Assembly (NCBI RefSeq): GCF_006402735.1
Contig: NZ_CP017174.1
Span: forward strand, 3,847,001 to 3,911,000
Direction: 5' to 3'
Length of the DNA stretch: 64,000 nt
Source of the DNA: Myxococcus xanthus
GTDB lineage: Bacteria; Myxococcota; Myxococcia; Myxococcales; Myxococcaceae
The position numbers were made by a program, and so were the translations under genes. Below the pieces are notes generated by a model. The model worked only from the letters and a program-made list of their open reading frames with translations, was not told the origin of the DNA and made no database searches. How positions within the stretch are numbered: the first letter of the stretch is position 1; every line of letters starts with the position of its first letter. Of this stretch, positions 7,763 to 12,122 are shown piece by piece.

Positions 7763-7947
7763 GGTTGGCGCTGGCCGGGGTGTCAGTCCCCTCGCCTCGA
7801 ATCGTGTGGTAGCCTCGGCGCGCCGCTCGCGGGACTCCGATGCGACTTCCGATTCAAGCCTTTGGAGCCTGACCCGCGGTCGTTTCACTCTTCCCCGAGC
7901 GGCGCTTCCTTTCCCAAGCCCGGGCGCCCGGGGAGGACGTGCACACG
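7763..7947 (+). other. Intergenic region upstream of the TROVE/VWA gene
   Basis: This 185-base gap contains a tRNA-T-loop-like GATTCAAGCC near 7851 and CTCGAATCG near 7797, but no complete tRNA or Y-RNA fold could be drawn by eye. Because Ro60-type proteins bind Y RNAs that are often encoded next door, it is the first place to look for one. Confidence 0.2.
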
Positions 7948-9447
7948 ATGGCCGCACTGGCGGAAGTCCGCGTCGAACAGGTCGCCCGCGAAGACCTGGT
8001 GATGTTCGTCAACGCCTGCTTCTCCTGCACGGGGCAGCGGGAGTTCTACGGCGACGCGCGCGGCCAGTCCGTCTCCATCGAGTTCCTGCACCAGTACATC
8101 CTGGGCAACTACCGCCGGCTCTACGCGCGAACGCTCGCGGCGGGCATCAACCACTTCAATCAAGCGCAGATCATCCTCAACCTGCTCGCCAGTGGCAGCC
8201 CAGCGGATGCCCGGGACAAGGCGGAGGAGGGCGCGCTCATCGCCGCCGCGCTGCGCGCCCTGCCGCCCCAGCGGGCCTTCCGTGTCCTGGAGTCCCTGCG
8301 CGGCCGGCGCATCAACAATCGCCGGGCGCGGGCGATTGTTCGGGACTACGTGCACGGTCGCGCCAACCTGGCCTTCGACGCCGTGAAGTACCGCTCCAAG
8401 CTGCGCGCCGCCGTGTCCCACGGACACCTGAAGCTGGAGGGAGAGCTGGGGCCGTTCCTCTTCCGTGGCTGGAAGAAGCGCTCCTTCACCCAGCCCTTGC
8501 TGGAGACCTTTCGCCGCGCGCACTACACCCACGAGGCTCTGTACGAGCTGCCCTACACGGTGGCGGAGGGCCTGGCGGTGAAGCACGGCATCTCCCGCGA
8601 GGTGTTCCTCCGGCGCATCGAGCCGCGCCTCACGGCGGCGGAGCGCCTGCGCCTGCAAGAATCCGCGGCGCGCGAGCGCGGGACTCCGCCCCCGGTGGAC
8701 CTGGGGCGGGCATCCCTGACGAAGTTGGCGCTGTATGTCCTGGCCCTGTCGCTGGAGGTTCGCCGGGAGCGCCACGCGGAGCTGCACGCCGCGCTGGAGC
8801 AGGCCGCGGCCCGCGTCCTGCGCAGGGCCCCGTCGCCGTTGCAGCGGGTGGCCGCGATTCTGGACAACAGCTATTCGTCGTCCGGGTCGCTGGAGAAGCG
8901 CCGCCGTCCTCTCGGTGTGGCACTGGCCACGCACTACCTGCTGTCCGCTGCCGCCCGGGAGTACCGCGCGTGGTGGACGTGCCCGGTGGAGGAACCGCTG
9001 CTCGTCAGTGCACGAGGGCAGACGGACATCGCCACGCCGCTGTTGGAGGCGTTGGCCTGGGGCGCCGACCTGGTGGTCATCGTCTCCGACGGCTACGACA
9101 ATGATCCGCCCAAGGCGGTGGCCGAGCTGACACGCGTGTTCCGCTCGAAGCTCGACCCGGAGCGCCACACGGCGCTGGTTCATGTCAATCCGGTGTTCGA
9201 TTCGGAGGGGTATGCCCCCCGTTCCTTCGGTGCGGCCGTGCCCACGGTGGGGGTCCGGGACGCGGAGGACTTGCCCACGGTGCTGGGCTTCGCGCGCTTC
9301 GCGGAGGGGGTGGCGTCGCTCTCTGAGCTGGAGGCCTACCTCGCGTCGCGCGTGGGCGCGATGTTGCAGCGGGACGCCGGGGGCCGGCAGGGCCATGACG
9401 AGGGGCGCCGTCAGGATGCGCCGCCGGCGGAGGAGGGCGAATCATGA
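7948..9447 (+). CDS. TROVE/VWA-like (Ro60-type) protein
   Basis: The 499-residue protein has an alpha-helical N-terminal region of about 310 residues resembling the HEAT-like TROVE ring (AGINHFNQAQIILNLLASG; LRALPPQRAFRVLESLRG). A C-terminal von Willebrand A domain follows with a full MIDAS: DNSYSSSGS (DxSxS), the Thr in GQTDIATPL, and the Asp in VSDGYDN. Ro60/Rsr proteins bind misfolded or Y RNAs and assist RNA quality control. ATG at 7948 is preferred over GTG 7939 because GGAGG lies 11 bases before it. The stop overlaps the start of the next gene (ATGA), so the two proteins are probably made together. Confidence 0.78.
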   Translation: MAALAEVRVEQVAREDLVMFVNACFSCTGQREFYGDARGQSVSIEFLHQYILGNYRRLYARTLAAGINHFNQAQIILNLLASGSPADARDKAEEGALIAAALRALPPQRAFRVLESLRGRRINNRRARAIVRDYVHGRANLAFDAVKYRSKLRAAVSHGHLKLEGELGPFLFRGWKKRSFTQPLLETFRRAHYTHEALYELPYTVAEGLAVKHGISREVFLRRIEPRLTAAERLRLQESAARERGTPPPVDLGRASLTKLALYVLALSLEVRRERHAELHAALEQAAARVLRRAPSPLQRVAAILDNSYSSSGSLEKRRRPLGVALATHYLLSAAAREYRAWWTCPVEEPLLVSARGQTDIATPLLEALAWGADLVVIVSDGYDNDPPKAVAELTRVFRSKLDPERHTALVHVNPVFDSEGYAPRSFGAAVPTVGVRDAEDLPTVLGFARFAEGVASLSELEAYLASRVGAMLQRDAGGRQGHDEGRRQDAPPAEEGES

Positions 9448-10613
9448 CGGACGCACGGCTCATTCAACGGCTGGAGCCCGCGGGCCTGCGGTTGGCTCCG
9501 TCTCAGGTCTGCGGTGGCATCCGGTTGGTGCCAGTCTTGAGGGACGAGGTGCGTGGCGACCTCCGCATGACCTTGCGGACGTACGACGACGTGGCCGCGG
9601 TCGTCTCGGTGAAGGGTGGGCTGAAGGAGCCAGGCCTCAAGTACATCTCGTATGTTCCTCACGGCCTGGTCATGACGTGGGGAAACCGTCAGGCGGAAGC
9701 CGTCTATGGAACGCAGCTGCAAGCCGTGGATGGGAAGAGCCTGAGGGCTGGCCCCTTCTCCATCCGGCTGCTGCACCGGATGGTGCACCGTGAGGACCGC
9801 CGCCAGCTTCGGATGCTCCCGTTGCATCTGGCCATGGAGGGCTTCCTGTCCTTGCAGTTCGGCGGGCCGGAGATTGCCTGGGCCGAGTATTCACGCGAGG
9901 GCCTCTCGCGAGGCCTGGCCCCTCGCTCCGAGAGCTCGGTCCCTGGGTGGGCATCGCCAATGCTGGATGGGGCGCTGCGCACCTTCGAAATCCATCCGCG
10001 GCAGGTGGGTCTGCTGCTGTTCAACGCGGACGTGTTGCTGTCGGCCTTCGTCGTCGCGCACCCGGATGACTACCGCGCGCTCCACAGGACATTGGTGGAG
10101 GACTTCTATTGCGACCTGCTGCTCCAGTACGGATTCCTGGGGGACGCGCCCGAATTGGGGCTCACCCTGGATGACGCTCGGGTGTCCAGCTTGGAGGACT
10201 TGCGCAACGAGGTGCACCGCATGCGCCAGGACTGGGCCGACTTCCACGGTTTCATGGCCGGGAGCCTCTTCGGTGCCAGCCTGTCGTCCACCCCTGTCTA
10301 CAAGGCGGGCGGTTTTCTCCTCCAGCGCTTCCACACCTCGCTGGACCCGGCAGAGGAGAACCACATCGGCGAGGCCATCGTCGGTACGGACGGCACCCTG
10401 GAGTACCTCAAGACGTATCGCTTGTCGGCGGCCCAGACGCGCCGGGCTTACCTCTTGTCACAGCTTGCCCAGTGCGAATGGCATCTGGAGGACACGGCGG
10501 AGCGTCTGCGCACCACGGCCAGCGACCTGTCCCTCCGCCTGCGAAACGCCGGATTCGGCTATCTCCTCAAGGACTCCGTCCTCGAAGCCGCCCAGCGGAA
10601 GCCTCGCCGCTGA
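9444..10613 (+). CDS. Partner of the TROVE/VWA protein, with C-terminal Fis-type HTH
   Basis: The 389-residue protein overlaps the TROVE/VWA gene by 4 bases. Its body is a mixed alpha/beta domain I do not recognise with certainty; from memory it resembles the family Pfam calls ARPP-2, unverified. The last 50 residues (LAQCEWHLEDTAERL then SLRLRNAGFGYLL) have the spacing of a Fis-type helix-turn-helix such as those ending sigma-54 activators. It has no signal peptide or membrane segment. Coupling suggests an RNA-linked or DNA-linked role with its partner; that is inference. Confidence 0.7.
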   Translation: MTDARLIQRLEPAGLRLAPSQVCGGIRLVPVLRDEVRGDLRMTLRTYDDVAAVVSVKGGLKEPGLKYISYVPHGLVMTWGNRQAEAVYGTQLQAVDGKSLRAGPFSIRLLHRMVHREDRRQLRMLPLHLAMEGFLSLQFGGPEIAWAEYSREGLSRGLAPRSESSVPGWASPMLDGALRTFEIHPRQVGLLLFNADVLLSAFVVAHPDDYRALHRTLVEDFYCDLLLQYGFLGDAPELGLTLDDARVSSLEDLRNEVHRMRQDWADFHGFMAGSLFGASLSSTPVYKAGGFLLQRFHTSLDPAEENHIGEAIVGTDGTLEYLKTYRLSAAQTRRAYLLSQLAQCEWHLEDTAERLRTTASDLSLRLRNAGFGYLLKDSVLEAAQRKPRR

Positions 10614-10630: not shown

Positions 10631-11239
10631 TTACTCCTCGGGCTTCGCGGGCGGCGGCGGCGCATAGCCTGTGGCGGCCATCCGCTGCCCGCTGCGCTGA
10701 TACATCTCCGCGGGCATGTCCTGCACGCCGGTGCCGTCAATCCATCGATTGTAGAAGTTGAAGAGCGCGCACACCGTCACGGTGTCGAAGAGGGCTTCGT
10801 CCGTCCACCCGGCGTCCTTCAAGCGTGCGATGTCCTCCCGTCCCACCTGCGCCGCACGGTGGTTGAGGGTGTCCACGAAGGCAAAGAGCGTCTTCTCGGC
10901 CTCGGAGATGGGGGCTGTCGCCACGTCCTCCAAGACTGCTTTCACCATGTCGGGATTGCCCAGCAGTTCCGCCGCGACCGCGGCGTGAGAGCCCGTTCAA
11001 AACAAGCATTGGTTGCCGCGCGATGTGTACGCGGCAATCAGCTCTCTCAGTCCGGGCGACAGCGGGGAAGGTCCCCGCATGACTTCATGGGTGAAGCGGG
11101 ACAGGGCCTCGCCCAATCGCGGCTTGTACGCGAACAGGTGCCAGATCTGCGGGACGGGAGAGCCCACCTCTCGGGCCATGCGAATCAGCCGGCCGTAGTG
11201 GCCATCGGATTCGCGGTCCTCGACGTCCTTCAGATGCAT
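10631..11239 (-). CDS. AhpD-like (peroxidase-related) protein, probable selenoprotein with Sec81
   Basis: Two adjacent reading blocks in one frame are separated only by a TGA at 10997-10999. Read through, they give a 202-residue protein of the AhpD/carboxymuconolactone decarboxylase superfamily. The TGA falls exactly on the second redox residue of the family CxxC motif: GNQCLF-U-TGSHAAVA, Cys78 and Sec81. A GC-rich hairpin starts 11 bases after the TGA (10970-10985). The N-terminal block starts MHLKDVEDRE at ATG 11239; the C-terminal block continues through AWTDEAL-like helices (KDAGWTDEALFDTVTVCALFNFYNR given here only as start KDAGWTDEAL) to EE. The role is likely thiol/peroxide redox chemistry. 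The alternative is a gene inactivated by a nonsense mutation. Confidence 0.8.
10970..10985 (-). promoter_or_regulatory. Candidate bacterial SECIS hairpin
   Basis: On the minus strand CGCCGC-GGTC-GCGGCG forms a perfect 6-bp stem with a 4-base loop that begins with G. It starts 11 bases downstream of the in-frame TGA, within the usual window for a bacterial SECIS element recognised by SelB. It is coding sequence (Ala/Val-rich), so the GC-rich hairpin could also arise by chance. Confidence 0.5.
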
Positions 11240-11324
11240 GCGGTCCACGGCACCCTCGGCGGCAGCGGGCTGGAATGTCCAGCCCGCATGCTCGCATGGG
11301 CCACGGCGTGCCACCAGCCTTCGC

Positions 11325-12122
11325 TCAGGCGCTGGGCCCCTGAAGCGACGTCAGGAAGGCATCCAGCACGGCGTTGACCCGATCGGGCTGTTCCTGGTTG
11401 GCCAGGTGCCCCGCATCCGGAATGACCTCCAGCTTCGCTCCGGAGATCAGTCCGGCGATTTCCTTCGCCTTGGCCAGCGGGGTGAGGGCGTCGTGCTCGC
11501 CCACGACGACCAGTGCCGGGCCCGCGTACCGCGCCAGCATGTCCTTGCTGTCCGGACGCAGGGCCATGCCGCGCAGCGCGGCCGCGACGCTCGCGGGCGA
11601 GGCCGCGCGCATCAGTGCCGCCACTTCCTGGGCCACCGGTGAGTCCGGTCCCGCGGCCACCATCTTGGGAAGCATGGCCTGGATGATGGGCTCCACGCCG
11701 GCCTCCAGCGCCTGGGTCGCGGAGGTCTCCCGGCGCGCCTTGCCCTCCGCGTCGTCCGCGGTGGCCTGCGTATCCATCAACACCAGCCCGCTGACGCGGC
11801 CCGCATCCTCGCGCAGCAGGGCCATGGCGGCGTAGCCCCCCATGGACACGCCACCCACCACCACGGTGTCCAGCTTCAGCGCGTCCAGCAGCGCCAGCGC
11901 GTCACGCGCGATGCGGGACATCTCCGTGGGGCCGTCGCCCAGCGCGCTCTCACCGAAGCCTCGGATGTCCGGGATGATGAAGCGGTAGCGCCCCGACAGC
12001 GCCTTCACCTGTTTGTCGAATGTGCTGCCATTCAGCGGAAACGCATGCAGCAGCAGCACGGGCGGGCCCTTGCCCTCGTCCCGGTAGTGCAGGGGGACGC
12101 CATCCACGGCGACGGTCAGCAT
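11325..12122 (-). CDS. Alpha/beta-fold hydrolase
   Basis: The 265-residue protein is a classic alpha/beta hydrolase. It shows the oxyanion strand LLLHAFPLNGSTF, the nucleophile elbow VGGVSMGGYAAMA (Ser), acid Asp in VVGEHDALTP and His in DAGHLANQEQP. It is similar in layout to 3-oxoadipate enol-lactonase/BioH-type enzymes, but the substrate cannot be assigned. It lies 86 bases upstream of the AhpD-like selenoprotein gene in the same direction and may be cotranscribed with it. Confidence 0.9.
   Translation of the reverse strand: MLTVAVDGVPLHYRDEGKGPPVLLLHAFPLNGSTFDKQVKALSGRYRFIIPDIRGFGESALGDGPTEMSRIARDALALLDALKLDTVVVGGVSMGGYAAMALLREDAGRVSGLVLMDTQATADDAEGKARRETSATQALEAGVEPIIQAMLPKMVAAGPDSPVAQEVAALMRAASPASVAAALRGMALRPDSKDMLARYAGPALVVVGEHDALTPLAKAKEIAGLISGAKLEVIPDAGHLANQEQPDRVNAVLDAFLTSLQGPSA

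What the first reader, a model, noticed from the sequence alone, without database searches (positions are those of the whole stretch)
10631..11239. In-frame TGA at the second redox position of an AhpD-like protein: probable selenocysteine
The TGA at 10997-10999 replaces exactly the second Cys of the CxxC active site (GNQCLF-TGA-TGSHAAVA). Homology continues on both sides in the same frame. A 6-bp GC hairpin with a G-initial loop begins 11 bases later, in the place of a bacterial SECIS. A random nonsense mutation would be unlikely to hit that codon. Gene callers usually split such genes into two.
Basis: partly seen in the sequence, partly recalled or inferred. Interest (0 to 1): 0.85.

Follow-up and report, generated by a model that had tools for sequence, protein, structure and literature searches.

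The report
Selenium-containing AhpD-like enzyme gene
A Myxococcus gene carries an internal TGA that is almost certainly read as selenocysteine in the active site of a small antioxidant-type enzyme, a sound example of a selenoprotein family that is already known.

Summary
On the minus strand, complement(10631..11239) encodes a 202-residue CMD/AhpD-type protein of NCBIfam TIGR01926, broken only by TGA at 10999-10997 (codon 81, motif C78-L-F-U81). The selenocysteine reading is strongly supported. The genome holds tRNA-Sec, selA, selB and selD and a second TGA gene, SelW-like. In all 40 orthologues (56% identity or more, own gene included) among 96 family genomes the TGA sits at this codon; all 40 genomes have a strong tRNA-Sec. 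Of 29 fetched weaker relatives reaching this codon, 11 have TGA there and 18 Cys. The hairpin meets the published bacterial SECIS constraints, is frozen at silent sites and keeps pairing through double changes. Five orthologues from other phyla, 53-60% identical, also have the TGA. The kind is not new: a 2026 review lists "AhpD-like protein, TIGR01926, CxxU", citing the 2005 Sargasso Sea study. This is a well-supported new member of a known selenoprotein kind; selenium in the protein is not shown and the substrate is unknown.

The parts
10631..11239 (-). AhpD-like (CMD domain, TIGR01926 peroxidase-related) selenoprotein gene, 202 residues with U81
   Evidence: Single frame ATG to TAA with one TGA; PF02627 42.5 bits over 23; TIGR01926 102.6 bits over 81.8; 40 orthologues, own included, with the TGA
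10997..10999 (-). TGA codon 81, read as selenocysteine (CxxU)
   Evidence: TGA in 40 of 40 orthologues; of 29 fetched weaker relatives reaching this codon 11 have TGA and 18 Cys
10970..10985 (-). Apical hairpin of the bacterial SECIS: 6-bp stem CGCCGC/GCGGCG, loop GGTC, loop starts 17 nt after TGA
   Evidence: Meets the constraints quoted in PMC13188914; codons 85-90 identical in 40 of 40 orthologues; double changes keep two pairs
11006..11008 (-). Codon for C78, the partner Cys of the CxxU motif
   Evidence: Invariant in 40 of 40 orthologues; position computed from the frame
10985..10987 (-). Codon for H85; with E66 and C78-x2-U81 it matches the AhpD active-site spacing (spacing recalled)
   Evidence: E66, C78, U81 and H85 invariant in 40 of 40 orthologues; aligned with Glu, CxxC and His of solved relatives 6k40, 2pfx and 2oyo
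11325..12122 (-). Neighbour upstream on the same strand: alpha/beta hydrolase, 85 nt away; probably kept by descent rather than as an obligate partner
   Evidence: Abhydrolase_1 94.7 bits; beside the gene in 28 of 30 family loci examined (own included), not found in 5 of 5 loci from other phyla

Best explanation
This is a functional selenoprotein gene. During translation the UGA at codon 81 is decoded by SelB-GTP carrying Sec-tRNA(Sec, anticodon UCA), which recognises the GGUC-loop hairpin just downstream; SelA and SelD make the Sec-tRNA. The product is an AhpD-like oxidoreductase whose redox pair is C78/U81 (CxxU), with E66 and H85 as likely proton-relay residues. Most likely U81 is the attacking selenolate and C78 the resolving thiol, forming a selenenylsulfide during reduction of a peroxide or disulfide. 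Shown here by computation: the reading frame, the TGA and its conservation, the hairpin and its conservation, genes for the Sec machinery, and the Sec/Cys pairing. Inferred: actual Sec insertion, the roles of the Sec factors (established knowledge), the catalytic roles (from recalled knowledge of AhpD) and the reaction; the substrate is unknown.
For: tRNA-Sec 70 bits, called SeC (tca) by ARAGORN; selB, selA and selD above cut-off; TGA in 40 of 40 orthologues at 56% identity or more, own included; all 40 of these genomes are among the 87 of 96 with a tRNA-Sec of at least 59 bits, and the 9 genomes without one have 0 such genes; of 29 fetched weaker relatives reaching codon 81, 11 have TGA and 18 Cys, none another residue; a second TGA gene, SelW-like with CTAU and a 7-bp hairpin, in the same genome; silent-site freezing in codons 83-91, 5 of 6 against 0 of 35 elsewhere; a stem of at least 5 bp in place in 56 of 56 Sec-type against 2 of 18 Cys-type sequences; 162 of 162 cells paired with two double-changed pairs, covariation 0.169 against a shuffled mean of 0.044 (register-matched rows only); purifying selection on both sides of the TGA; 5 orthologues with TGA from Acidobacteriota, Actinomycetota, Planctomycetota and Gemmatimonadota, 5 of 5 with tRNA-Sec in the genome or record.
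Against: No protein-level evidence of selenium. The hairpin is not unusually stable (47 of 200 shuffles as stable here, 177 of 200 in L062), and 16.6% of all window TGAs meet the simplified SECIS model. In L070 the minimum-energy fold of 51 nt is a different hairpin, and in L062 the centroid is. In L071 the stem in the usual place has a loop without G in its first two positions. 47 of the 87 family genomes with a strong tRNA-Sec have no such orthologue, so the gene is dispensable. Eight of the nine cells with double changes share one C-G to G-U change; on the wider alignment that forces L072 into the same register, only one pair has double changes and 96.7% of cells pair. No Rfam family matches.
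Confidence: 0.96

Rival explanations
1. Pseudogene or recent nonsense mutation: the TGA truncates the protein and the downstream part is decaying.
For: A TGA does interrupt the frame; the standard-code ORF list gives two pieces.
Against: TGA at the same codon in 40 of 40 orthologues down to 56% identity (own included), and in 5 of 5 from four other phyla; amino-acid constraint after the TGA (pN/pS 0.12-0.59 in 11 pairs); 30 invariant residues after codon 91, 24 of them with more than one codon.
Confidence: 0.01
2. Two separate short proteins (split gene) or a functional truncated protein, with the downstream ORF started at an internal ATG (10948).
For: An internal ATG opens a 105-residue frame downstream of the TGA.
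Against: A split would not be expected to keep TGA rather than TAA or TAG in 40 of 40, nor the Cys/Sec pairing, nor frame continuity with one-piece Cys relatives and solved relatives.
Confidence: 0.01
3. UGA is read through with another amino acid (for example Cys or Trp by a near-cognate tRNA), without selenium; Sec machinery present but not used here.
For: The computation cannot see the residue. Such replacement under selenium starvation is possible in principle (recalled).
Against: A dedicated tRNA-Sec, SelA, SelB and SelD are present; the SECIS-like hairpin is frozen at silent sites in 40 of 40; strong tRNA-Sec in the 45 genomes or records with an orthologue that were tested.
Confidence: 0.02

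Closest known systems
AhpD-like selenoprotein, TIGR01926, CxxU (table in PMC13188914, which cites the Sargasso Sea study PMC1088965)
   Same: Same NCBIfam family above cut-off (102.6 over 81.8 bits), same CxxU motif with Sec at the second position; the 2005 paper reports stem-loops after the TGA in its new families (passages read).
   Different: The review names MCB9421940.1 as example; I could not compare the letters. The 2005 paper files its AhpD-like family under COG2128, which was not tested here.
CMD-domain selenoprotein, PF02627, CxxU (PMC1088965 / PMC13188914)
   Same: Same Pfam domain and motif.
   Different: A broader label; TIGR01926 is the tighter fit.
AhpD_rel_CFYUT (seleno)protein, NF041238
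   Same: Shared AhpD core (48.4 bits, profile positions 223-335); listed as CxxU in PMC13188914.
   Different: Far below its cut-off of 175 bits: not a member.
Solved peroxidase-related / AhpD proteins, e.g. 6k40, 2pfx, 2oyo
   Same: Alignment over 119-152 of the 202 residues, E 3e-16 to 4e-15; Glu and His aligned, CxxC where this has CxxU.
   Different: Cys, not Sec, at the second position.
Mycobacterium tuberculosis AhpD (recalled)
   Same: E-x11-C-x2-C-x3-H active-site spacing (recalled; here E66, C78, U81, H85).
   Different: Cys enzyme; not compared by any search here.

Membership tests
TIGR01926 peroxidase-related enzyme | Score over the curated cut-off (81.8 bits) | tested here: met
   102.6 bits
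PF02627 CMD domain | Score over the gathering cut-off (23 bits) | tested here: met
   42.5 bits
Bacterial selenoprotein | In-frame TGA conserved in orthologues | tested here: met
   40 of 40 family orthologues, own included; 5 of 5 from other phyla
Bacterial selenoprotein | Cys in homologues at the TGA position | tested here: met
   18 of 29 fetched weaker relatives have Cys there, the other 11 TGA; also L111 and L123
Bacterial selenoprotein | tRNA-Sec, SelA, SelB and SelD genes in the genome | tested here: met
Bacterial SECIS (model quoted in PMC13188914) | Loop 3-9 nt; stem 4-16 bp; G in the first two loop positions; 16-37 nt from UGA; MFE at most -7.5 | tested here: met
   Loop 4 nt GGTC, stem 6 bp, spacing 17 nt, -10.8 kcal/mol for the bare hairpin; 259 of 1558 window TGAs also meet a simplified form
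Bacterial selenoprotein | Selenium found in the full-length protein | not testable with these tools
   Needs 75Se labelling or mass spectrometry
NF041238 AhpD_rel_CFYUT | Score over the cut-off of 175 bits | tested here: not met
   48.4 bits
AhpD-type peroxidase | Peroxidase or disulfide-reductase activity | not testable with these tools
   No assay; inferred from family and active-site residues

The most novel reading that the evidence does not exclude
The gene belongs to a Sec-fixed branch of TIGR01926: a supported clade (24 thinned rows, support 97/93) from Myxococcota, Acidobacteriota, Actinomycetota, Planctomycetota and Gemmatimonadota in which every member found here that reaches codon 81 has Sec and none Cys. 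Its hairpin core CGCCGCGGTCGCGGCG is identical at the DNA level in Myxococcus, a Bryobacteraceae genome and a Gemmatirosa megaplasmid that also bears a tRNA-Sec. This would be an enzyme that does not revert to Cys and that moves between phyla with the Sec trait.
Probability: 0.35. Interest if true: 0.4.

Novelty: new member of a known kind. Interest (0 to 1): 0.25.

Why it matters
It would mend the reading of a gene that the standard code splits, in many Myxococcaceae, and suggests that this Myxococcus uses selenium in at least two proteins (this one and a SelW-like one). It could give laboratory myxobacteria a simple reporter for Sec insertion. It does not change what is known about how Sec is inserted or about the AhpD-like selenoprotein kind.

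Tried and rejected
Pseudogene, split gene and sequencing error were rejected on conservation. The hairpin's folding energy as evidence was dropped because shuffles do as well; likewise the mere match to the SECIS model. In one search the L060 stretch was taken from the wrong coordinates (not the Cys codon) and is not used as a control. Rfam gave nothing in 10700-11300. A covariance model of the TGA region (R1) run on the own genome found only this gene clearly (101.7 bits); the next three, 18-23 bits at E 0.08-0.76, were not followed up, and only 150 of 16142 first-look candidates were scored, so it says little about other selenoproteins. A Fdh-alpha search found no member over the cut-off and no stop inside its five matches. 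An operon role for the alpha/beta hydrolase and CorA neighbours was set aside because they were not found beside the 5 orthologues from other phyla. A search of plasmids with the own selB region gave 106 records, none covering 80% of the query, and did not settle whether the Gemmatirosa plasmid has selB (5 rows seen). No structure prediction was run, because solved relatives align directly. Literature searches touching Myxococcus or myxobacteria (search listings only) showed no paper on this gene; that covers only this open-licence library.

Rows dropped or chosen: alignment A1 used 15 of 40 orthologues and 10 of 11 weaker TGA relatives (L071 left out). A2 used the same 15, 9 of the 11 weaker ones and 3 of 5 from other phyla; L071, L072, L107 and L110 were left out because their hairpins lie in another register (each has a stem of at least 5 bp, but L071's loop breaks the G rule), so the 100% pairing is for register-matched rows. 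The tree dropped 21 near-duplicate loci. L088 (51% identical over residues 121-200 only) does not reach codon 81 and is in no count. The 18 Cys-type relatives are those fetched out of a longer list of weak matches; 10 of them are one close group of Myxococcaceae paralogues, so they are not 18 independent cases. Some of the 18 hold a TGA elsewhere in the match, perhaps their own stop; not examined. L064 has a second TGA that was not examined. One search looked for exact short peptides, one of them with Cys at position 81, so it favours near relatives.

Full report
What is there. The finding lies on the minus strand. Window 10631-11239 minus, read with TGA=U, is one 202-residue frame from ATG to TAA with a single TGA at codon 81 (10999-10997)...ELIAAYTSRGNQCLF-U-TGSHAAVAAELLG.... 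The standard code gives two pieces, 10997..11314 and 10631..10948. The protein, given to the programs with C for U, has the CMD domain PF02627 (42.5 bits, cut-off 23) and belongs to NCBIfam TIGR01926, peroxidase-related enzyme (102.6 bits, cut-off 81.8). Solved relatives 6k40, 2pfx and 2oyo align over 119-152 residues at E 3e-16 to 4e-15 with CxxC where this has CxxU.

The window lies in a 9.3-Mb single-contig genome; the nearest named relatives found are Myxococcus, including M. xanthus AM003 at 98%.

Sec machinery. The genome has a tRNA-Sec of 70 bits, called SeC with anticodon tca by ARAGORN; SelB in one 688-residue frame, 284.8 bits (309.6 with its neighbour) against a cut-off of 242.25; SelA, 545 bits against 268; SelD, 386 bits against 125. 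A second selenoprotein candidate is present: a TIGR02174 SelW-like gene, 39.5 bits over a cut-off of 34.2, with one TGA inside, in CTAU, followed by a 7-bp hairpin.

Conservation of the TGA. Of 96 genomes of the family (own included), 60 have some match and 40 have an orthologue of 56% identity or more; each of the 40 has one TGA in the match, and it is at codon 81 in 40 of 40. A tRNA-Sec of at least 59 bits is listed for 87 of the 96 genomes, these 40 among them; the 9 without one have none of the 40 genes (one search read; the tool itself counts 88 of 96 over the family's cut-off). The weaker tRNA hits, at or below 48.8 bits, I take to be other tRNAs (inference). 47 genomes have a strong tRNA-Sec but no such orthologue, so the gene goes with the trait but is not required by it.

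Weaker relatives (23-40% identity) were fetched, a part of those listed. Of the 29 that reach codon 81, 11 (L062-L072) have TGA exactly there, in C-x-x-U, and 18 have Cys. Orthologues from other phyla came from a scan of species genomes and of plasmids: Acidobacteria bacterium (55%), Acidimicrobiia bacterium (57%), Bryobacteraceae (53%), Gemmataceae (60%) and Gemmatirosa kalamazoonensis plasmid 2 (53.6%); 5 of 5 have TGA at this codon, and 5 of 5 of their genomes or records have a tRNA-Sec of 68 bits or more. The same scan gave one far relative with Cys, from Flavobacterium at 27%.

The hairpin. After the TGA come 11 nt, then CGCCGC-GGTC-GCGGCG. The bacterial SECIS model quoted in PMC13188914 (passage read) asks for a 3-9 nt loop, a 4-16 bp stem, a G in the first two loop positions, 16-37 nt from UGA to the loop, and an energy of -7.5 kcal/mol or less. 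Here: 4 nt, 6 bp, GG, 17 nt and -10.8. On its own this is weak: 259 of 1558 TGAs in the window meet a simplified version, and the 51-nt energy is matched by 47 of 200 shuffles. Conservation is what counts. Among residues invariant in all 40 orthologues and coded by at least three-fold degenerate codons, 5 of 6 in codons 83-91 use a single codon in 40 of 40, against 0 of 35 elsewhere; the five are those inside the hairpin (86-90), and the one that varies is Ser84, just before it. An uninterrupted stem of at least 5 bp with its loop starting 16-22 nt after the codon occurs in 56 of 56 Sec-type sequences and 2 of 18 Cys-type ones (in L071 the loop lacks the early G). On alignment A2 (27 register-matched rows) 162 of 162 cells pair; one pair is C-G in 19 and G-U in 8, another C-G in 26 and U-A in 1; the covariation score is 0.169 against a shuffled mean of 0.044, none of 500 as high. 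With L072 forced into this register (A1) 96.7% of 150 cells pair and one pair has double changes. Eight of the nine double changes are the same change, so this is few events.

Selection. In 11 pairwise comparisons pN/pS is 0.02-0.52 before the TGA and 0.12-0.59 after the hairpin. After codon 91, 30 residues are invariant in 40 of 40, 24 of them with more than one codon. The downstream part is therefore under selection as protein in this frame.

Evolution. A tree of 54 rows needs three Sec/Cys changes. The window's gene sits in a clade of 24 Sec rows (97/93) that includes the other phyla. Long branches make the deeper joins unsure. A nearby Streptomyces Cys relative has TPYC, the first Cys replaced.

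Neighbourhood. An alpha/beta hydrolase and a CorA transporter lie upstream on the same strand. They are found in 28 of 30 family loci examined (own included) and not found beside the 5 orthologues from other phyla, so they look like shared ancestry rather than a functional unit.

Mechanism. Best reading: SelB-directed Sec insertion at UGA81, giving an AhpD-like oxidoreductase with a C78/U81 redox pair. E66, C78, U81 and H85 are invariant in 40 of 40 with the spacing that I recall for the AhpD active site. That U81 attacks and C78 resolves is inferred from recalled AhpD chemistry. The substrate is unknown.

Literature. PMC13188914 (2026 review; passages read) lists 'AhpD-like protein, TIGR01926, CxxU, MCB9421940.1', citing PMC1088965 (2005; passages read), which found 27 AhpD-like and 4 CMD-domain Sec sequences with CxxU. 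PMC2398784 (passages) and PMC1794560 (passages) also list AhpD-like Sec families. Searches joining Myxococcus or myxobacteria with selenoprotein or selenocysteine (listings only) showed nothing on this gene. So the kind is known and this is a new, well-supported member.

Noticed in passing
L122 (own genome G000:C1:8466423-8466626, minus): SelW-like (TIGR02174) gene with in-frame TGA in CTAU and a 7-bp hairpin after it: a second probable selenoprotein of this genome.
   Followed up: partly
L112 and NZ_CP007130.1:460131-460223: A 1.04-Mb Gemmatirosa kalamazoonensis plasmid carries both a TGA orthologue and a 68-bit tRNA-Sec, so parts of the Sec trait sit on a plasmid.
   Followed up: partly
window 9444-10613 (+) and 7939-9447 (+): An ARPP-2 domain protein (364 bits) whose start overlaps the end of a 502-residue ORF with no Pfam, NCBIfam or PDB sequence match at the limits used.
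   Followed up: partly
L088 (G003:C1:1573242-1573487): A fragment 51% identical to residues 121-200 of the protein with no upstream part matched: perhaps a decayed second copy.
   Followed up: no
L123:986-1540: Streptomyces plasmid relative (43%) annotated peroxidase-related enzyme has TPYC instead of CxxC: the first Cys is gone.
   Followed up: no
L099 (BNCN01000010.1): A record titled Comamonas sp. KCTC 72670 carries a 92% identical TGA orthologue; its contig length equals that of a contig in G067, which the genome search files in the window's own genus, so the name looks wrong.
   Followed up: no
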